Below are positions 18,520 through 31,840 of a stretch of DNA of 64,000 nt, one piece after another. This DNA is from Mariprofundus aestuarium (lineage in GTDB: Bacteria; Pseudomonadota; Zetaproteobacteria; Mariprofundales; Mariprofundaceae), in the NCBI RefSeq assembly GCF_002795805.1, contig NZ_CP018799.1, forward strand, positions 186,001 through 250,000. Direction: 5' to 3'. The notes under the pieces are model-generated. The model did not search any database. It saw nothing but the letters and a program-made list of their open reading frames with translations, and had not been told where the DNA came from. Position numbers and translations under genes: made by a program. Position 1 is the first letter of the stretch. Every line of letters begins with the position of its first letter.

Positions 18520-19005
18520 ATGCAAGAGGCGCGTTATCTCGAACCGTGTGATGAAAACGACTACCAACTTGATCACATCCGGCTGCTCAGTAATAGCCTT
18601 GTCCACTGGAGTGGTTGCGGGTTGATGGATGACGAGCCCGATCCGGTCATCGCTGCCCGCAGGCTCTACTACGCCCCGTTCGCACTGCTCTCGCACGGCA
18701 CTGAAGCTGACCCGATCATCAATTACGCCAACCATACAGCGCAGCAGCTGTTCGAAATGGGGTGGGATGAGTTCACGAAACTTCCATCAAGACTTTCGGC
18801 CGAGGCGGTGGTTCAGCAGGAGCGCAATGCCCTGCTCAAACGGGTAAGTGACAACGGATATATCGACGACTACTCAGGCATTCGCATCGCCAAGAGTGGC
18901 AGGCGTTTCAAGATCGAAGACGCCACGGTTTGGAACCTGAGCGATCCGCAGGGCAAATATTGCGGCCAGGCCGCTATGTTCAGTATCTGGCATCTTTTGA
19001 GGTGA
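18520..19005 (+). CDS. MEKHLA-domain protein
   Basis: A 161-residue protein that is almost entirely one MEKHLA domain, a PAS-related sensor fold also found at the end of plant HD-ZIP III factors. Telling segments are APFALLSHGTEADPIINYAN, LFEMGWDEFTKLPSR, IDDYSGIRIAKSGRRFKIED and VWNLSDPQGKYCGQAAMF. Bacterial members are thought to bind a small ligand or sense redox state, but the role is not established. It follows glyS by 13 bases and precedes a sensor kinase gene with its own promoter. Confidence 0.82.
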   Translation: MQEARYLEPCDENDYQLDHIRLLSNSLVHWSGCGLMDDEPDPVIAARRLYYAPFALLSHGTEADPIINYANHTAQQLFEMGWDEFTKLPSRLSAEAVVQQERNALLKRVSDNGYIDDYSGIRIAKSGRRFKIEDATVWNLSDPQGKYCGQAAMFSIWHLLR

Positions 19006-19073: not shown

Positions 19074-20608
19074 GTGGAGCATGAACTGAATGGCAATAAT
19101 TCGCACCTCGGCAGAAGGTTTCTGGCAGGTGCATTGATCTGGAGCGTGCTGATCGCAGCTGCGCTCTACTGGAACTACTACCAGACAACTCAGCAAACCA
19201 TTAACCTGGCAAAAAACGAAGCACAGGCCCACTTTAATAAAGATAAAGCATTCAGATTCTGGGCCGCATCGCACGGCGGCGTCTATGTGCCGGTGACCGA
19301 CCGCACCCCGCCCAACCCCCGACTGGCCCATATTCCCGAACGCGATATTACTACGCCAGCGGGCAAGAAGCTGACCCTGATGAATCCGGCCTACATGCTG
19401 CGCACGATGATGCAGCAGTATGAAGAGCTGTATGGCGTGAAGGGGAAGATCACCACTTTTCCGGATAAGCTCTTTTATCAGGGAAACATGCCTGATGTCT
19501 GGGAGCTGGCCGCACTGAACCGTTTCAGGCAGGGCAGCAGAGAGGCTTTGGAGATTTCCAACATTGATGGCGTACCCTATATGCGTCTCATGCAGCCGAG
19601 ATGTTTATGAACCAGAGCTGCATGAAGTGCCACGGCTATCAGGGTTACACGGACGGAGATCTAAGAGGGGGTGTGGGTGTCTCCGTTTCCATGCAGCCCT
19701 ATCTGGATGCAGAGCAGAAGGAGTTGCAAACGCAGTGGATTACCTATGTTCTTATCTGGCTGACTGGCCTGGCGGCACTTGGTTATTTCTACGTCCGGGC
19801 CAAAATAAGTGCACATAGACTGCAAGTGATACAGCAGCAGTTTGCGCAGAATCAGAAGACGGAGGCAGTCAGCACGCTGGTTACAGGCCTCGGTCGCGAT
19901 TTCAACGATATACTGGCGAGCATGACCAGTAACCTGTATCTGCTCAAGAGTAACCTGAAGGAGAACCTTGAAGCTGAACAAAAGCTTCTCAGTATTGAAA
20001 CGCTTACCTATCGTGCGGGAGCGCTGATTAACAGCTTGCTGGCATTTGCCAGCAGGGAGAGCGGTGATATGCAGCCCATGCTGTTTTCATCACTCGTCAA
20101 TGATACAGTCAAAATCATCCGGCCTTCGCTGCCGGAAAACATCAGGATCAATCAGGAAATCTGTTCCGAGCCGCTGCAGATCAGGGGCAGCGCTATCCAT
20201 CTTAAACAGGCAGTGCAGAACCTGATCAACAATGCTCAAGAAGCAGTTGAGGGTGTCTCTGATCCAAAGGTCGCTATCAGGCTTGAGTCGTTCTTCGCAG
20301 ATGGTGCATTTATCCATAGCCATGCAGTTAACAGAAGTGGCAACTATGCCCATCTCGTTATTGAGGACAATGGACGTGGTGTTCCGGAACATCAGATCGC
20401 GCATCTTTTTGAACCGTTCTTTACCACCAAGAGGGAGGGCAAGGGGGCAGGACTCGGACTGGCAGTAGTATATGGCACGATTAATGCCCATGGCGGTTTT
20501 GTAGAGGTGGAGAGTGTCGAAGGAGAAGGTTCAAGCTTCCACATCTATCTGCCGTTACTGGAGGGTAAAGGGGACGTCTCTGCACCTAAGGCAGGAGAAG
20601 ATGAGTAA
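19074..20608 (+). pseudogene. Frameshifted Tll0287-like heme-motif sensor histidine kinase
   Basis: Two overlapping frames, 19074-19610 and 19601-20608, together make one membrane kinase of about 511 residues. The first part has a transmembrane helix (residues about 14-30) and most of a Tll0287-like (DUF3365) sensor domain. The second begins inside that domain at NQSCMKCHGYQGY, a CxxCH heme motif. A second helix and HisKA/HATPase domains follow. At 19596-19601 CCGAGATG reads through if one G is added (CCG GAG ATG), so one base appears lost. The HisKA site reads TGLGRDFNDIL: the phospho-accepting His is Arg. ATPase motifs (NLINNAQEAV, EDNGRGVP, GAGLGLAVVYG) remain. It may be a decayed gene or a sequencing error. 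Confidence 0.8.
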
Positions 20609-20838: not shown

Positions 20839-22449
20839 ATGCCTGAACTGAAGGTTTCCATTGATCAAAACGAACAATGCATCCCCTATGAGGGCGGGGA
20901 TATATCGCGTTCACTCAAAGATATTCTTGATGCCGAGGGCATAACCCTGCCAAGTGATTGCGGTGGCGTCGGAAAATGCGGCCTCTGCCTTGTGCATATC
21001 GAGGCGGGTGAGTGCACGCCGCTCTCTGCCTCAGAGAAAACCACACTCAGTGGTGATGAACTCAACCGGGGCTGCAGGCTGGCGTGTCAGGCTAAACCAC
21101 TTGGGGATATGAGTTTGAGCATCCTCAAGGCGGATAACCCGGCGGCCTGGTCTGAGCTCGAAGCAGATGGCGTCACTGGTAATGCATCAGCCTCGAATAA
21201 ACTTGGATTAGCAATTGATCTCGGCACCACTCAGATCAGGGCCACGCTCTGGAACCTCGACAGCAAAGTCCGTATCGATGGCATTACATCACTTAATCCA
21301 CAGGCGAAATTTGGAGCCGATGTTCTGACCCGTCTTGCCGCAGCCAAAGCTTCAAAATTAGATGCTGATCAACTCTCACTACTTGCCAGCAGTGCGGTTG
21401 GCGAAGCGGCGCGCATCCTTGTCTCCCGCCATGGGCTGGTTACGACAGCGATCAGATCAATATCTGTTGTGGCCAACACCGCCATGCTGGCGCTGCTTGC
21501 CGGCAAGCATTATGAGAACCTTCTCGAGATTGAGCAGTGGCAGAAACCGGTGGATTGCGTGCCGGAGAGCATTTATGCGTGGCAACAGGCATGGGGAGTT
21601 GCTACCGATGCGCAGATCAACCTGGTGCAACCGCTGGCGGGGTTTGTCGGCTCAGATCTTCTGGCAGGTGTGCTCTCCACCAACCTGACCGGCAGTGAAG
21701 ATGCTGCACTGCTGGTCGATTTCGGCACTAACTCCGAGGTTGCCCTCTGGGACGGACAATCGCTGTGGGTCACATCGGTACCGGGAGGCCCAGCCTTTGA
21801 AGGCAGTGGCCTGAGTTGCGGGGTGCCTATGATGGAAGGGGCGATCTACAAAATAAGCGGGCATGGGGCAGATGATTCCCTTGAACTGTATGTGATTGGT
21901 GGTGCTCAAGCCAAGGGGGTATGCGGTTCAGGACTCGTTGATGCCATCGCCTGCCTGCTGAGCATTAAAGCACTCAACCCGATTGGTAGGCTTGCCGAGC
22001 CCTATGCTAAAGCGGGCTTCCCGCTGGATGAGACAAGCTCCATTCGCATAAGAAACCACGATATCGACCTGTTTCAGCGCGCCAAAGGGGCTACGGGTGC
22101 GGCCATTGTCTATCTTCTGGAGCAGGCTGGCCTGAAGCAGGCTGCGCTAAAAAGGGTCTGTGTTACCGGTGCATTCGGCAGTGGACTTGATTGCCGGAAC
22201 GCTTCACAGATCGGCCTGATTCCGGATGTGGATAGTGAGATCATCGAACTATACAGCGACAGTGCGCTGGCCGGATGCGAGGTGCTGCTGGTCAGCGCAG
22301 GTGGCCAGCAGCGGCTTTCCTCTTTAAGGGAGAAGGCCAGGCTGATTAACATGTCGCTGGCACCTGAGTTCGACATGCTTTTTGTCGACAACCTCTTTCT
22401 CAAGCCACTGCCAAAAAGCGGCAGCTCCACCACTTCTATGCTAGAATAA
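20839..22449 (+). CDS. Reductive activator of corrinoid proteins (2Fe-2S plus ASKHA, DUF4445)
   Basis: A 536-residue RACE-type protein. Such enzymes use ATP to reduce inactive Co(II) corrinoid back to Co(I). The N-terminal ferredoxin-like domain carries Cys41, Cys47, Cys50 (SDCGGVGKCGLC) and Cys83 (CRLAC). The ASKHA ATPase-like region starts near residue 122 with GLAIDLGTTQIRATLW and continues with LVDFGTNSEVALWDG and TSVPGGPAFEG, typical of DUF4445. GSGLVDAI, TGAFG and QIGLIPD follow. It heads the cluster, 43 bases ahead of the corrinoid-protein start, which supports the assignment. Its in vivo partner here is inferred. Confidence 0.88.
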   Translation: MPELKVSIDQNEQCIPYEGGDISRSLKDILDAEGITLPSDCGGVGKCGLCLVHIEAGECTPLSASEKTTLSGDELNRGCRLACQAKPLGDMSLSILKADNPAAWSELEADGVTGNASASNKLGLAIDLGTTQIRATLWNLDSKVRIDGITSLNPQAKFGADVLTRLAAAKASKLDADQLSLLASSAVGEAARILVSRHGLVTTAIRSISVVANTAMLALLAGKHYENLLEIEQWQKPVDCVPESIYAWQQAWGVATDAQINLVQPLAGFVGSDLLAGVLSTNLTGSEDAALLVDFGTNSEVALWDGQSLWVTSVPGGPAFEGSGLSCGVPMMEGAIYKISGHGADDSLELYVIGGAQAKGVCGSGLVDAIACLLSIKALNPIGRLAEPYAKAGFPLDETSSIRIRNHDIDLFQRAKGATGAAIVYLLEQAGLKQAALKRVCVTGAFGSGLDCRNASQIGLIPDVDSEIIELYSDSALAGCEVLLVSAGGQQRLSSLREKARLINMSLAPEFDMLFVDNLFLKPLPKSGSSTTSMLE

Positions 22450-22492
22450 TAGAGTCAGGAGTTATGAATCTGAACCTGTAATGGGGGTAGCC

Positions 22493-23158
22493 ATGCAGAC
22501 AGAGATTATCAAAGCATATAACGAAGCGGTCTACGACACCGATCGAGATAGAGCTATGGAGGTTATTCACGCCGCTCTTAAGCAAGGTGTAACCCCTGAA
22601 GAGATTGTATTTGATGTGGTTATTCCCGCCATGGAATCGATGATGCAAGCCATCAGTGAAGATTTCGATGCCAATCTCGCCCAGCATTTCATGGCTGCCC
22701 AGATCGCATCCCAGGTCACCGAAGAGATGATTGCCCAATTCAAAACACCGCCGGAATCACTCGGCACCATTGTCATCGGCACCTCGGTTGGAGATATGCA
22801 TACACTCGGTAAACGCATCGTCTCTGGTTGCCTGCGCTCGATGATGATCGATGTGGTTGACCTAGGGGTCAATATTAAACCTGAGGCCTTCGTCGACAAA
22901 GCTGTTGAGATCGACTCTCCGGTTATCGCCATATCTTCAATGATGATGCATACGGCAACCAGCGAGAACGGCTGCCAACGTGTTCGTGAAATTCTCAAGG
23001 AGCGCGGTCTTGAAGATAAGATCAAGATTGTCGTCGGAGGTGCTCCCTACCGCTGGGACAATGAACTCTATAAAACCGTGGGTGCCGATGCCTGGGCCGA
23101 TAACGGCATCACGGCGGGCGAGGTGATCAAAAAAATCGTTATGGAGGCCAAGTCATGA
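22493..23158 (+). CDS. Corrinoid-binding protein (MtaC/MttC/MtvC family)
   Basis: A 221-residue methyl carrier. The N-terminal helical cap runs to about residue 85. The B12-binding domain then has GTSVGDMHTLGKRIV, in which Asp101, His103 and Gly106 form the DxHxxG motif whose His ligates cobalt. VVDLGVNIKPEAFVDKAVE and IVVGGAPYRW are further family features. Two starts are possible, 22481 and 22493; the second is preceded by GGGGGTAG and gives the usual N-terminus. The stop overlaps the methyltransferase start by four bases, showing that the two are expressed together. Confidence 0.9.
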   Translation: MQTEIIKAYNEAVYDTDRDRAMEVIHAALKQGVTPEEIVFDVVIPAMESMMQAISEDFDANLAQHFMAAQIASQVTEEMIAQFKTPPESLGTIVIGTSVGDMHTLGKRIVSGCLRSMMIDVVDLGVNIKPEAFVDKAVEIDSPVIAISSMMMHTATSENGCQRVREILKERGLEDKIKIVVGGAPYRWDNELYKTVGADAWADNGITAGEVIKKIVMEAKS

Positions 23159-24186
23159 TTACAGGTATGGACAGGCTGGTCGCAGCCATTAACGGTGAAA
23201 AATCCGATCGCATTCCGGTCTTCTGCAACCTGCTCGATCAGGGCGCTGCCGAGCTCGGTATCTCCTCGCTCGAAGAGTATTACTCAAATGGTGAACATGT
23301 GGCCGAAGCGCAGCTGAAGATGCGCGAGAAGTATGGCCACGATAATGTCTGGAGCCTCTTTTATGTTGGCAAGGAGGCCGAACTGCTCGGTTGCGAGAAG
23401 ATCATCTTCTCCAAAAGCGGGCCACCCAATGTCGAGGATTATGTCATTAAATCCTACGATGATATCGTTAATCTCGAGATTCCTGATGATATCTCCACCC
23501 ATCCTGGATTTGAGGAGAACCTCAAATGCCTCAATATCCTTAAGCGCGAGGTGGGCGGCACACAGCCGATCTGTGCTTATCTCACTGCTGGTATCACCCT
23601 GCCCGCGATCCTGATGGGCATGGACAAGTGGCTGGAGTTGCTGCTGATGGGGCCGACCGATATCCGTGACCTGCTGATTGAGAAGTGTTCGGATTTCTTC
23701 CAGAGGGAGGCTGCCGCTTTCCGCAAGGCTGGTGCCGATGTGCTGGTCTATTCGCAGCCCTTCGGCTCTACCGACATTATGCCGATGCGGTTGATCAAGG
23801 AGCTGACACTGCCATCGATAAAGAGGGATCTGGAGCCGGGCGGCATGGATGGAATGGTCTACTACTGCGGCAGCTCTCCATTTAACAACGTCATCGACAT
23901 GATGATTGAGAAGTTCGGCTTCGGCGTTTTCTACCTCAGCCCCAAGGATGATATTGCTGAGGCCAAGAAGATCATCAACGGCCGCGCACTCACCTGTGGC
24001 GTGATCAACGATATCAAGCTGGTCAGCTGGAGCCGCGAGGAGATCAGAGCCGAGGTTAAACGCATGCTGGATGCCGGCATGCCGGGCGGGAAATTCCTCT
24101 TTGGCACACTGGTGATGCCATATGATATTCCGGAGAAAAATATCAGGGCCATGCTGGAAGCTGCCTATGAATACGGCAGCTACTGA
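23155..24186 (+). CDS. URO-D/MtaA-family corrinoid methyltransferase, divergent
   Basis: A 343-residue TIM-barrel protein of the uroporphyrinogen decarboxylase/methylcobamide methyltransferase superfamily, not HemE by context. The opening TGMDRLVAAINGEKSDRIPV is standard. Canonical MtaA enzymes bind zinc through HxC plus a distant Cys. Here the HxC site reads VYYCG (Tyr236, Cys238), and the distal position reads FLFGTLVMPYDIP without Cys. The protein may therefore transfer methyl groups in another way, or act on a different substrate. It overlaps the corrinoid gene by four bases and the DUF1638 gene by 20. Whether it is the substrate-side or acceptor-side methyltransferase is unknown. Confidence 0.85.
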   Translation: MITGMDRLVAAINGEKSDRIPVFCNLLDQGAAELGISSLEEYYSNGEHVAEAQLKMREKYGHDNVWSLFYVGKEAELLGCEKIIFSKSGPPNVEDYVIKSYDDIVNLEIPDDISTHPGFEENLKCLNILKREVGGTQPICAYLTAGITLPAILMGMDKWLELLLMGPTDIRDLLIEKCSDFFQREAAAFRKAGADVLVYSQPFGSTDIMPMRLIKELTLPSIKRDLEPGGMDGMVYYCGSSPFNNVIDMMIEKFGFGVFYLSPKDDIAEAKKIINGRALTCGVINDIKLVSWSREEIRAEVKRMLDAGMPGGKFLFGTLVMPYDIPEKNIRAMLEAAYEYGSY

Positions 24187-24775
24187 GCCTGACAGCCTGC
24201 TGCTCATCGGCTGCGGTATACTGCAGAGGGAGATCCGTTATCTGATTGAAAGGAATCAGTGGCCGCTGGACACCTCGTTCATGCGCTCCGCCCTGCATAA
24301 TAATATAGGCAAGCTGGAGAAGGGGTTAAGAGGATCGCTGGCCAAGCGAGCGGACCGGGAGACCATCGTCTTTTACGGCTGTTGCCATCCGAATATCGAT
24401 CATATTGTTGCCGAAGGTCACTCTTTACGCACACCCGGCCAGAATTGCGTGGACATCTTGCTTGGACGTGAGTTGTTTGACCGGGAGTTGGCCAATGGCG
24501 CGTTTTTCCTGCTGGAGGAGTGGGCTCAGCGCTGGAGTCCGATCACCGAAGAGGTGTTTGGCAAAAACCCTGTTGTGATTCGCAGCGTATTCCATGAGGC
24601 ACATCAATATATTCTGGCAATTCGTACACCCTGTTCCAGCGATTTTAGTTCAGAAGCTGAAGAGGTAGCCCGCATTGTGGATTTGCCATTGCGCTGGATG
24701 GATGTGGGGCTGGAGCATCTCCAATCCGTGCTTGAGGAAACCATGCAGCGGAAGCTGAAGGAACGCGATGAGTGA
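24167..24775 (+). CDS. DUF1638 family protein
   Basis: A 202-residue DUF1638 protein with LLLIGCGILQREIRYLIE, VFYGCCHPN, TPGQNCVDILLG and GAFFLLEEWAQRW. Several conserved cysteines (Cys16, then the CC pair and the NC) could bind metal or a cofactor. The family often occurs beside corrinoid methyltransferases, but its function is not established. The ATG at 24167 is chosen because GGAAG lies about seven bases upstream and the family start motif follows. It overlaps both neighbours, so its product is probably needed in step with the methyltransferase. Confidence 0.82.
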   Translation: MNTAATEPDSLLLIGCGILQREIRYLIERNQWPLDTSFMRSALHNNIGKLEKGLRGSLAKRADRETIVFYGCCHPNIDHIVAEGHSLRTPGQNCVDILLGRELFDRELANGAFFLLEEWAQRWSPITEEVFGKNPVVIRSVFHEAHQYILAIRTPCSSDFSSEAEEVARIVDLPLRWMDVGLEHLQSVLEETMQRKLKERDE

Positions 24776-26477
24776 ACAGGAAAAACAGCTGAGCGCTCAG
24801 GAGGTGGAGCAGCTGCAAGCGCGGGCCAAGAAGCTGGCGATGGAGAAATCCTATTTTCAGCTGGTGATGCAGATGATCACCCGCATCAGCGAAACACCGG
24901 GGCTTGAAAATGTCATCGACAGCATGCTCTTAAACACCATGAACGTTCTCGGTGGCAGCAATCTACAGCTCTACTACAAAATTGATGAGCAACTCTACTA
25001 TGCAGATGTTATGGGGAAGAAAAAGCAGCTGGTGGGGTATCCTGATGAAGTGATCGCCCGAGTATACAAGACCGGACGGGAGGAGGAGATTGAGGGAGGT
25101 TTTGAGGATACCCAGTTGAAAACCGCCGAATTCACCAAGGCCTATACCTGGGTCTATCCGCTCAAGATCAGCAGCGAGGTGATTGCTGTCTTCAGGATGA
25201 AGAACCTGCATATCGATATGCGCCAGCTATATGAGCAGCTGCCCGCGTTCTTCAACTTTGCCGCCCTGGTGCTGAAAAACGAGATCCTCGGCCAGTCAAG
25301 GTTGCAGAAGATAAACCTCCAGCTTGAAGCCGAGGTTGCAACGCGTAAACAGACCGAAAAGGAGCTTCGCATTGCCAAAGACCATCTTGAGGCGGCGGTG
25401 GAGGAGCGTACTGCTGAGCTTAGAGAAAAGTCAGAGGAGCTCGACCTCTTCTTTACCTCAACACTGGATCTGCTCTGCATCGCAGATACAGATGGGTACT
25501 TCAGGAAGCTAAATCCGGAATGGGAGAAGGCACTTGGTTATCCATTAGATGAGCTTATAGGACGAAGGTTTCTCGACCTGATTCACCCCGATGATTTGGA
25601 GAGTACGCTGCAGGCGATTGCTGCCCTGTCTGATCAGAACCCATTGTTGAATTTTACCAATAGATATCTTCACAAGGATGGAACCTATCGCTGGCTTGAA
25701 TGGCGTTCGTATCCGGTAGCTTCAACGATATATGCATCTGCACGTGATATTACTGAGCGCATGAAGATGGAGGCCGAGCTGGCTGAGCGCTCTGCGGAGC
25801 TGAAAGAGATCAATATGCAGCTTTCCCACGAGCTTGAGGAGCGCAAGGCATTCATTGAGAAGTTGGCGCAGAGTGAGAAGGAGTATTACGCACTGGTCCA
25901 TCAGCTGCAGGTGGCTGTGGTCGTTCATGACCCTGACTCCTCCATTCACATCTACAACGATCTTGCCTGTGAGCTTCTCGGGCTGACCCCCGAGCAGCTG
26001 GAGGGAAAAACCGCCTACGACCCGGAGTGGCACTTCTTCGATGAGCAGGGCACCCCTCTCAAGCCTGATCAATACCCGGTTAACCGCGCCCTTGTCTCCA
26101 AAGAGGCGGTTCGCGATTTGGTTGTCGGCGTTCAACGCCCGGCCAGTAACGATCAGATCTGGGTGCTGTCCCATGCCAACCCGATCATGAGCAGTGGCGG
26201 TGAAATTGTGCAGGTGGTGGTTACCTTTATTGATATTACCGATAAAGTGAAATCAGAAGAGGAGATCAGGCGCTTTAACACCGAGCTGGAGCAGTTGGTG
26301 GAGGAGCGCACGGAAAAACTGACCGAAACCAACAAACGACTTGAAGGCTTTAACGAGATTATGGCTGAACGCGAGATGCGGGTGGTCGAGATCAAGCAGG
26401 AGGTGAACCTGCTGAGTCAGCAACTGGGTCGCGAAATGCCCTACAAGGAGATATGGAATGCGCTTCAGGAGAAATGA
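24768..26477 (+). CDS. GAF/PAS sensor protein without kinase domain
   Basis: A soluble 569-residue sensor. A GAF-like domain (about 30-180) is followed by a coiled coil, a PAS domain with PAC (about 225-340, FTSTLDLLCIADTDGYFRKL), another coiled coil, and a second PAS (about 372-495, including YDPEWHFFDEQG). A long C-terminal coiled coil (ELEQLVEERTEKL) ends it. There is no HisKA, HATPase, GGDEF or other output domain. It probably works by contacting the kinases encoded downstream. The gene overlaps DUF1638 by eight bases and the NMT1-like gene by 20. Confidence 0.85.
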   Translation: MSEQEKQLSAQEVEQLQARAKKLAMEKSYFQLVMQMITRISETPGLENVIDSMLLNTMNVLGGSNLQLYYKIDEQLYYADVMGKKKQLVGYPDEVIARVYKTGREEEIEGGFEDTQLKTAEFTKAYTWVYPLKISSEVIAVFRMKNLHIDMRQLYEQLPAFFNFAALVLKNEILGQSRLQKINLQLEAEVATRKQTEKELRIAKDHLEAAVEERTAELREKSEELDLFFTSTLDLLCIADTDGYFRKLNPEWEKALGYPLDELIGRRFLDLIHPDDLESTLQAIAALSDQNPLLNFTNRYLHKDGTYRWLEWRSYPVASTIYASARDITERMKMEAELAERSAELKEINMQLSHELEERKAFIEKLAQSEKEYYALVHQLQVAVVVHDPDSSIHIYNDLACELLGLTPEQLEGKTAYDPEWHFFDEQGTPLKPDQYPVNRALVSKEAVRDLVVGVQRPASNDQIWVLSHANPIMSSGGEIVQVVVTFIDITDKVKSEEEIRRFNTELEQLVEERTEKLTETNKRLEGFNEIMAEREMRVVEIKQEVNLLSQQLGREMPYKEIWNALQEK

Positions 26478-29866: not shown

Positions 29867-31840
29867 ATGGTTGAAAACGATAGCCTATCGATAGCCTCGT
29901 CCGAGATTCTTGTCGTTGACGATACCCCGGCCAGCCTGAAGCTGATCACTGAGACGTTGAGGGGGGAAGGTTATCTGGTGCGCCCCGCCAACAGCGGCGA
30001 GCTGGCGCTGAGCTCGGCAACAGCCAAGCCGCCAGCGCTGATTCTTCTCGACATCCGCATGCCGGGCATGGACGGTTTTGAGGTGATTGGCAAACTGAAG
30101 GCGAATGAGATCACCCGCGATGTGCCGGTGATCTTCCTCAGTGCATCGGTCGAACTAGAGAGCCACCTCAAGGGTTTTGATCTCGGTGCTGTTGATTTCG
30201 TGACCAAACCGTTCCAGCGCCAGGAGCTGCTAGCGAGGGTGCGCACCCACCTTGAGCTCTATCAGCTGCGTACCCGCATGAAGCAACTGATAGATGAGCG
30301 CACCGCGGCGCTCGAAGAGAGCCAGACGCGCTTCCGCCGCCTAGTTGAGAGCCTGCGCAATGAATTCTTCCTCTTCGAGCGCGATGCCAAGGGCATGTTT
30401 ACCTATGTCAGCCCATCAATCAGCAACCTGCTCGGTTACAGCCAGGAGGAGTTCAAAGCCCATTATGCCGAATACCTGAGCGACAACCCGATCAATCAAG
30501 AGGTGGAGAAAAGTACCCAACTGGCTATTTCAGGAGATCAACAGCCATCCTATCAGTTGGAGATTCTTGCCAAGGATGGCTCACGCCACTGGCTGGAGAT
30601 CAACGAGTCTACGGTGATGAATGAAAATGGAGAGGTCATTTCGATAGAGGGGATCGCCCACGATATCACCGACAAAAAGGAGCTGGAGGAACAGTTCATG
30701 CAGGCGCAGAAGGTGGAGGCGCTGGGCACACTGGTCGGTGGCATGGCCCACGATTTTAATAACCTGCTGGCTGGTATTATGGGATCGCTCTATATCGCAA
30801 GGCGAAGAATCGAAAGGGAGCCTGAACAGGCGAAGGAGAAGATAGCGACGGCGGAAACCCTCGGTAATAAAGCCGCTGATATGATCAAGCAGCTGCTCAC
30901 CTTTGCCCGCCACGGTGTTGTGGAGAAATCGGCCACGCCGATCAAGTCATTGTTCAAGGAGTCGTGCAAGCTCATCGAACCGGGTGTGCCGGCCAATGTC
31001 ATATTTAAGTCCAGTTACGATGAGGCTGAAATGCTGGTCATGGCCAGTCCCGCCCAGCTGCAGCAGGTGCTGATGAATCTGGTGAATAACGCCCGCGACG
31101 CCACGATCGATGCGAAAAATCCCGAAATCACCCTTAGCCTGAAGCCCTATGATGCGGATCAGGCATTCAGGGAGAAGTACCCGGACATTACGGCGCGAGA
31201 ATTTGCGCTAATCGAGGTGAAGGATAACGGCTGCGGTATTAGCGGTGAGAATTTGGATAAGCTGTTCCTGCCCTTCTTTACCACCAAGGATCCGGGCAAG
31301 GGGACAGGACTCGGGCTGGCCATGGTTTACGGCACTATCAGTGATCACGGAGGTGTGATTGAGGTAACAAGCAGAGTGGGTGAGGGATCCACCTTCCAGC
31401 TCTTCCTTCCGCAGGAAAAGGTGGAAGAGGAGAGTTTGGGAGCAGAAGCTGAAGAGCTGCGCGCCGCTGGTGGAGAGACCATTCTGCTGGCTGATGATGA
31501 TGAGGTGCTGCTGCTCGCCTACTCCGATATTCTCGAGAGTCTCGGCTATCATGTAATCACGGCAACTAACGGTATGGAGGCGCTGAAAACCTATACGGCC
31601 AATGTTGATGGCATTGATCTGGTTATTCTTGATGTGGTGATGCCGGAGATGGGCGGCGTGGATACGGCCCACGATATTCGCAAGATCAGCCCCGCTCAGA
31701 AGGTGGTTTTCTCCACCGGTTACGATCTGAATCAGGATATGGTTAAACACCTCACGGAGCAGAAAGAGGTTATTATCAGCAAGCCGTGGGCCGTTGCGAT
31801 AGCCAGTAAAATTATTCGCGAGCAGCTCACTTCGTCATAA
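29867..31840 (+). CDS. REC-PAS-histidine kinase-REC protein
   Basis: A soluble 657-residue hybrid. The N-terminal receiver has Asp62 (LILLDIRMPGMDGF). A short coil and a PAS domain (about 155-275, FLFERDAKGMFTYVSPSI) follow. Next are HisKA with His295 (GGMAHDFNNLLAGIMGSL), HATPase (LMNLVNNARDA, KDNGCGIS, GTGLGLAMVYG) and a second receiver with Asp589 (LVILDVVMPEMGG). No DNA-binding output is present. The start lies two bases after the preceding kinase stop. Phosphate may pass from the upstream hybrid kinase to the first receiver; that link is inferred from gene order. Confidence 0.93.
   Translation: MVENDSLSIASSEILVVDDTPASLKLITETLRGEGYLVRPANSGELALSSATAKPPALILLDIRMPGMDGFEVIGKLKANEITRDVPVIFLSASVELESHLKGFDLGAVDFVTKPFQRQELLARVRTHLELYQLRTRMKQLIDERTAALEESQTRFRRLVESLRNEFFLFERDAKGMFTYVSPSISNLLGYSQEEFKAHYAEYLSDNPINQEVEKSTQLAISGDQQPSYQLEILAKDGSRHWLEINESTVMNENGEVISIEGIAHDITDKKELEEQFMQAQKVEALGTLVGGMAHDFNNLLAGIMGSLYIARRRIEREPEQAKEKIATAETLGNKAADMIKQLLTFARHGVVEKSATPIKSLFKESCKLIEPGVPANVIFKSSYDEAEMLVMASPAQLQQVLMNLVNNARDATIDAKNPEITLSLKPYDADQAFREKYPDITAREFALIEVKDNGCGISGENLDKLFLPFFTTKDPGKGTGLGLAMVYGTISDHGGVIEVTSRVGEGSTFQLFLPQEKVEEESLGAEAEELRAAGGETILLADDDEVLLLAYSDILESLGYHVITATNGMEALKTYTANVDGIDLVILDVVMPEMGGVDTAHDIRKISPAQKVVFSTGYDLNQDMVKHLTEQKEVIISKPWAVAIASKIIREQLTSS

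What the first reader, a model, noticed from the sequence alone, without database searches (positions are those of the whole stretch)
19074..20608. Heme-motif sensor kinase with a one-base frameshift and lost phospho-histidine
The two frames merge perfectly if one G is restored at CCGAGATG (19596-19603). The break falls just before the CxxCH motif in NQSCMKCHG. Independently, the HisKA box has Arg where the intact kinase at 29867 has His (GLGRDFND against GMAHDFNN). The ATPase motifs look intact. Two independent lesions favour decay, or a pseudokinase that dimerises with another kinase.
Basis: seen in the sequence. Interest (0 to 1): 0.6.

Follow-up and report, generated by a model that had tools for sequence, protein, structure and literature searches.

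The report
Frameshifted kinase-dead heme sensor gene
In an iron-oxidising marine bacterium, a gene for a heme-carrying environmental sensor had already lost its ability to phosphorylate itself, apparently while the sensing and ATP-binding parts were kept, and was then broken more recently by a small insertion; it looks like a 'pseudokinase' caught on the way to becoming a dead gene.

Summary
In detail: two overlapping frames (19074-19610 and 19601-20608) together encode one heme-Cache (Tll0287/PF11845) sensor kinase. The break lies just before CxxCH, and Arg replaces the phospho-acceptor His. Two details change. First, 96 of 96 measurable relatives keep exactly 11 residues between a conserved Arg and CxxCH; against that spacing the window carries two extra bases (a tandem GA/AG), not one missing G. 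Second, there is a further lesion: the receiver domain of the two closest orthologues (M. ferrooxydans PV-1 and CG1_02_53_45) is absent, and the gene ends 3 bp from tRNA-Arg.

The lesions are not alike. The sensor half shows no relaxed selection, while the kinase half does (omega 0.45 against 0.13). At near-invariant positions the phospho-acceptor domain is changed at 7 of 14 but the ATP-binding domain at only 1 of 21 (p=0.003). All 34 aligned paralogues in this genome keep His. Both frames are otherwise open, so the frameshift is recent.

Best reading: an orphan, laterally placed heme-Cache kinase first became a kinase-dead pseudokinase, then was recently frameshifted and is probably now a pseudogene. 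Nearest relatives have the same locus without the gene. The functional reading remains inference.

The parts
19074..19610 (+). ORF1: first membrane helix plus N-terminal part of the heme-Cache (Tll0287-like) sensor; ends in TGA at 19608-19610, before the heme motif
   Evidence: PF11845 30.2 bits over residues 40-175; 71/65/62% identical to orthologues L012/L013/L014 before the break
19119..19181 (+). predicted first membrane helix (FLAGALIWSVLIAAALYWNYY)
   Evidence: read from the translation; not run through a topology predictor
19596..19603 (+). frame break (CCGAGATG): two extra bases relative to three orthologues; looks like a GA/AG tandem duplication
   Evidence: DNA alignment; constant R-to-CxxCH spacing of 11 in 96/96 relatives
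19601..20608 (+). ORF2: heme motif, second membrane helix, degenerate HisKA, HATPase_c; no receiver domain. The ATG at 19607 overlaps the TGA of ORF1 (ATGA)
19619..19633 (+). CxxCH covalent-heme motif (CMKCH), out of frame with the rest of its domain
   Evidence: sequence; alignment A1
19736..19795 (+). predicted second membrane helix (WITYVLIWLTGLAALGYFYV)
   Evidence: read from the translation; conserved LIWLTGL in orthologues
19871..20065 (+). degenerate HisKA/DHp domain: 7 of 14 near-invariant residues changed
   Evidence: PF00512 15.8 bits, below cut-off, against 21.2 in L012 and L013, also below cut-off; column analysis
19895..19897 (+). CGC (Arg) at the phospho-acceptor His position
   Evidence: His in 34/34 reliably aligned own-genome kinases and in all orthologues
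20192..20557 (+). HATPase_c (CA) domain with N, G1, F and G2 boxes kept; 1 of 21 near-invariant residues changed
   Evidence: PF02518 82.4 bits
20612..20688 (-). tRNA-Arg(ccg); its 3' end is 3 bp from the stop codon of ORF2; homology to the kinase-free relatives resumes here
   Evidence: ARAGORN
18520..19005 (+). MEKHLA-domain gene; left edge of the extra gene, since homology to relatives ends at its stop
   Evidence: PF08670

Best explanation
This is one gene for a membrane-anchored periplasmic heme-Cache (sCache_heme/Tll0287) sensor fused to a histidine-kinase core. It is present only in this lineage at the MEKHLA/tRNA-Arg spot. SHOWN: the phospho-acceptor domain is remodelled around a His-to-Arg change, the receiver domain of the two closest orthologues is absent, the ATP-binding residues are kept, and a two-base insertion splits the frame just before the heme motif. 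INFERRED, order of events: loss of phospho-acceptor and receiver came first and left a kinase-dead but selected protein; the frameshift came last. INFERRED, mechanism: before the frameshift the sensor (heme redox state or NO) would have shaped the conformation of an ATP-binding pseudokinase that could dimerise with, and bias, one of the more than 30 paralogous kinases with the same type of H-box. INFERRED, today: translation stops before CxxCH, so neither half gives a heme-loaded sensor joined to a kinase core; the gene is most likely a young pseudogene.
For: Family-wide constant spacing and direct DNA alignment define the break as +2. His is kept in 34/34 reliably aligned own paralogues and in orthologues L012, L013 and L014. 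DHp 7/14 against CA 1/21 near-invariant residues changed, Fisher p=0.003; no other kinase among the most divergent rows listed exceeds 3 such DHp changes. Kinase branch: omega 0.45 against 0.13 background, 2dlnL 10.6, robust to an alternative topology; sensor branch 0.14 against 0.16, no difference. Kinase-tree end branch 0.96 against 0.23-0.44 for its nearest rows. Neutral simulation: no extra stop in 510 codons has P<0.01 at 0.1 neutral substitutions per site, far below the roughly 0.7 per site of the kinase branch. Receiver domain present in L012 and L013, absent here. Empty site in the relatives whose tRNA-Arg is identical, G001 and G015, and also in G019 and G020. Other remnants of related kinases in the same genome.
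Against: Synonymous sites are saturated, so branch omegas are rough; kinase omega cannot be told from 1 at 5% (2dlnL 3.2), and a three-taxon test did not show kinase relaxation significantly. The CA domain also evolves faster at variable sites. No orthologue shares the Arg, so conservation of the pseudokinase state across species cannot be shown. No expression data. No partner was identified.
Confidence: 0.55

Rival explanations
1. Plain decay: an acquired kinase that lost its partners was never needed here; all lesions accumulated without selection and the DHp/CA contrast is luck.
For: Patchy, non-syntenic gene; kinase omega compatible with neutrality; three other remnants of related kinases in the genome.
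Against: The sensor half shows purifying selection like its orthologues; DHp/CA contrast p=0.003; only one frame break and no stop in 510 codons, against expectation for an old pseudogene.
Confidence: 0.22
2. The frameshift is an assembly error and the organism makes an intact heme-Cache pseudokinase (Arg, no receiver domain).
For: No independent sequence of this species was available. The sensor is constrained, and everything else in both frames is open.
Against: A 2-base tandem insertion outside a homopolymer is an unusual consensus error; the probable source assembly has 382x coverage (PMC5513912). Genes in the syntenic stretch shared with G001 have full-length open frames.
Confidence: 0.12
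3. The gene still works as two polypeptides: ORF2 starts by termination-reinitiation at ATGA (ATG 19607 overlapping TGA 19608-19610) and inserts with its short N-terminus outside, pairing with ORF1 across the membrane.
For: Exact ATGA overlap with a weak GAG upstream; ORF2 frame fully open; positive charges follow the second helix.
Against: The break cuts a single Cache domain between its core and its heme insertion; such a split is not seen in any relative examined. ORF2 has no N-terminal signal, and heme attachment needs export of the CxxCH segment. The overlap can be a by-product of the insertion.
Confidence: 0.08
4. Programmed ribosomal frameshifting joins the two frames.
For: The ORFs overlap by about 40 nt in the right direction for a -1 shift.
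Against: No X XXY YYZ heptamer in the overlap; a -1 slip would give the wrong residue spacing; no relative examined has the arrangement.
Confidence: 0.03

Closest known systems
sCache_heme (DUF3365/Tll0287, PF11845) sensor proteins, PDB 5B82, PMC12889525
   Same: Periplasmic Cache core, two flanking membrane helices, CxxCH motif, fusion to a signalling output
   Different: Here the CxxCH is out of frame with the Cache core and the kinase has lost its phospho-acceptor
Orthologous hybrid kinases of Mariprofundus ferrooxydans PV-1 (L013/L090) and Zetaproteobacteria CG1_02_53_45 (L012/L089)
   Same: Same sensor (65-71% identical before the break) and same kinase type
   Different: They have one open frame, His in GIAHDFNN and a C-terminal receiver domain
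DivL pseudo-histidine kinase of Caulobacter (PMC4211667)
   Same: Phospho-acceptor His replaced while N, G1, F and G2 boxes remain
   Different: DivL has Tyr (Ala in Magnetospirillum), PAS sensors, wide conservation and a proven role; the window gene is single-species and frameshifted
ChrS_CA-fs pseudokinase of Corynebacterium glutamicum (PMC9491836)
   Same: A frameshift-made histidine pseudokinase, heme-related, acting by heterodimer formation with a paralogous kinase
   Different: There the CA domain is broken and DHp kept; here DHp is degenerate and CA kept, and the frameshift is in the sensor

Membership tests
sCache_heme / Tll0287-like (PF11845) | Significant match to the family profile | tested here: met
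   ORF1 30.2 bits against cut-off 24.1; family also found at this place in the whole-genome search
sCache_heme / Tll0287-like (PF11845) | CxxCH heme motif within the domain, in frame | tested here: not met
   CMKCH is present at 19619-19633 but in a different frame from the Cache core
sCache_heme / Tll0287-like (PF11845) | Covalent heme and NO binding | not testable with these tools
   Needs purified protein
Histidine kinase (HisKA + HATPase_c) | Phospho-acceptor His in the H-box | tested here: not met
   Arg; His in 34/34 reliably aligned own-genome kinases
Histidine kinase (HisKA + HATPase_c) | N, G1, F and G2 boxes of the ATPase domain | tested here: met
   82.4 bits to PF02518; 20 of 21 near-invariant CA residues kept
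Hybrid kinase of the PV-1 type | C-terminal receiver domain | tested here: not met
   ORF2 ends after the CA domain, 3 bp from tRNA-Arg; L012 and L013 have PF00072
Histidine pseudokinase (DivL-like in way of working) | Phospho-acceptor lost while the ATP-binding fold is retained under selection | tested here: inconclusive
   Residue pattern fits, but branch omega of the CA domain is raised and imprecise
Histidine pseudokinase (DivL-like in way of working) | Regulatory role through a partner kinase or regulator | not testable with these tools
   No partner identified
Histidine pseudokinase (DivL-like in way of working) | Pseudokinase state shared by orthologues | tested here: not met
   L012, L013 and L014 keep His
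Pseudogene | Reading frame disrupted relative to orthologues | tested here: met
   Two extra bases, early stop
Pseudogene | Relaxed selection over the whole gene | tested here: not met
   Sensor half not relaxed; only the kinase half

The most novel reading that the evidence does not exclude
A heme-Cache sensor whose kinase core was turned into an ATP-binding, non-phosphorylating pseudokinase. It would gate paralogous kinases by heterodimerisation in response to NO or redox, and still works today, either because the frameshift is an assembly error or because the two halves are co-translated by reinitiation and pair across the membrane.
Probability: 0.13. Interest if true: 0.6.

Novelty: new member of a known kind. 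Interest (0 to 1): 0.34.

Why it matters
Histidine pseudokinases are rarely caught in formation. Here the residue record suggests an order: phospho-acceptor and receiver lost, ATP-binding core and sensor kept, then a frame break. If confirmed, it supports the view that a kinase-dead stage can be selected before a two-component gene dies, in a genome crowded with paralogous kinases that could serve as partners. It also shows that family-wide residue spacing can tell a two-base gain from a one-base loss, which changes what resequencing should look for.

Tried and rejected
One-base deletion: rejected by the constant R-to-CxxCH spacing. Programmed -1 frameshifting: no slippery heptamer in the overlap. 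Kinase swap from a paralogue: the window kinase falls with L002, L003, L012 and L013 with weak support, so not resolved. Mobile-element insertion at tRNA-Arg: no flanking repeat or composition shift found. Remnant of the kinase in the sister spacer: none found by tblastn. First genome-contig scan with ORF2 found nothing; the sensor alignment worked. One codon-model run timed out and was repeated. PDB search by sequence gave only a weak hit to Tll0287 5B82 (E 0.055). No structure prediction was run, since it would not separate the rivals.

Full report
WHAT IS THERE. ORF1 (19074-19610) and ORF2 (19601-20608) lie on the + strand in different frames. ORF1 holds a membrane helix and most of a Tll0287-like domain (PF11845, 30.2 bits). 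ORF2 holds the CxxCH motif (19619-19633), a second helix, a sub-threshold HisKA (15.8 bits) and a strong HATPase_c (82.4 bits). tRNA-Arg(ccg) starts 3 bp after the stop codon, on the other strand. The window lies in a 2,537,610-base single-contig genome of the genus Mariprofundus, judged from named relatives. Size and topology match M. aestuarium CP-5 (2.54 Mbp, PacBio, 382x; PMC5513912). That identification is an inference.

THE BREAK. Intact orthologues exist in the genus: L012/L089 (CG1_02_53_45), L013/L090 (M. ferrooxydans PV-1) and L014/L091 (OFTM252). A DNA alignment is gap-free through the sensor stretch except that the window has two extra bases just before ATGTTT. The distance from the conserved Arg of RLMxP to the first Cys of CxxCH is 11 residues in 96 of 96 relatives with a readable motif; two further entries were truncated. 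The window gives 11 with a two-base gain and 12 with a one-base loss. The GAGA context suggests tandem duplication by slippage.

THE KINASE. The H-box residue is His in 34 of 34 reliably aligned own-genome paralogues and in all orthologues. One further apparent R, in L199, is a misalignment at its SHEIRT motif. Across the aligned kinases of this type, positions kept in at least 97% are changed in the window at 7 of 14 in DHp (E6Q, G19S, G23T, A26G, H27R, N31D, G38S; numbering of the core) but at 1 of 21 in CA (I152V). No other kinase among the most divergent rows listed exceeds 3 DHp changes; Fisher p=0.003. At the looser 90% level the contrast is 7 of 21 against 2 of 29, p=0.025. The receiver domain of L012 and L013 is absent. 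L014 also lacks one and has HTFNN, but its kinase is of another branch, sister to own-genome L189, so it is a separate case.

SELECTION. A branch codon model gives the window sensor omega 0.14 against 0.16 for the other branches, no improvement. For the kinase it gives 0.45 against 0.13 with 2dlnL 10.6, similar under a second topology; omega=1 is 1.6 lnL units worse. The kinase-tree end branch is 0.96 against 0.23-0.44 for the nearest rows; the sensor-tree end branch is 0.46 against 0.26 for L012 and L013 and 0.63 for L014, in a clade with support 99/90. Synonymous saturation makes these rough, and a three-taxon test was not significant. Neutral simulation shows that 510 codons stay free of stops with probability 0.09 at 0.05 and 0.009 at 0.1 neutral substitutions per site. 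The frame was therefore kept for nearly the whole branch, and the insertion is recent, or ORF2 is still translated.

SURROUNDINGS. G001 and G015, whose tRNA-Arg is identical, have the MEKHLA gene, about 550 bp without the kinase, then tRNA-Arg. G020 and G019 have about 25-165 bp there. The orthologues sit elsewhere (L012 lies beside a gene whose sequence reads as dnaB). Gain in this lineage is the simpler reading. No repeats or composition shift mark an element. The neighbours of the syntenic stretch are open in both genomes. The genome has about 65 HATPase_c matches. The window gene is its only heme-Cache kinase: of the other four PF11845 proteins two have GGEEF, one has GTGEF in a diguanylate-cyclase-like domain and one has an HD-GYP-like motif. 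Three other remnants of related kinases exist: L002 with two frame breaks in its receiver, a 5'-truncated CA-REC fragment (L213) and a lone REC fragment (L215).

HOW IT LIKELY WORKED. From PMC12889525 (preprint): the Tll0287 family is a Cache domain with covalent heme, CxxCH conserved in about 99%, and members fused to signalling modules have properties of NO sensors. From PMC4211667: DivL keeps all kinase boxes but the His and acts as a regulator without kinase activity. From PMC9491836: a frameshift-made ChrS pseudokinase works through cross-talk and heterodimers with a paralogue. By analogy, the ancestor of the window gene after the Arg change could sense NO or redox and bias a paralogous kinase. 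This is inference; no partner is known. With the present frame, heme motif and kinase are cut from the Cache core, so loss of function is the likeliest state now.

VERDICT.

Noticed in passing
L218 (G000:C1:1832500-1838500), kinase L002, near 1836820: The nearest own-genome kinase has two frame breaks within its receiver domain (one near LLWMSS, one after KPFSIEK), so a second gene of this subfamily is damaged.
   Followed up: partly
L213 747-1475 (G000:C1 about 2085246-2085974): 5'-truncated kinase fragment: second half of the CA domain plus receiver, 54% identical to the PV-1 orthologue, no DHp.
   Followed up: partly
L215 685-990 (G000:C1 about 733484-733789): Lone receiver-domain fragment related to the same kinases, with a stop in the profile match.
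   Followed up: no
L014/L091 (OFTM252): Orthologous sensor joined to a different, fast-evolving kinase (GIAHTFNN, no receiver), sister to own-genome L189: the sensor has been re-paired with another output. A GGDEF protein with a related sensor (L031/L096) lies a few kb away.
   Followed up: partly
window 24768-26477: PAS-domain protein of 569 aa; the syntenic gene in G001 (L219 11262-12488) has only 409 aa, so a PAS unit was probably gained or lost.
   Followed up: no
window 20839-24775: Conserved cluster next to tRNA-Arg: a large protein with a ferredoxin-like N-terminus, a corrinoid-type protein and a methyltransferase-like protein, in the same order in G001; names are from reading the sequence, not tested.
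   Followed up: no
L206 (G000:C1:33500-35500): Another heme-Cache protein of this genome ends in a diguanylate-cyclase-like domain with GTGEF in place of GGDEF, perhaps inactive.
   Followed up: no
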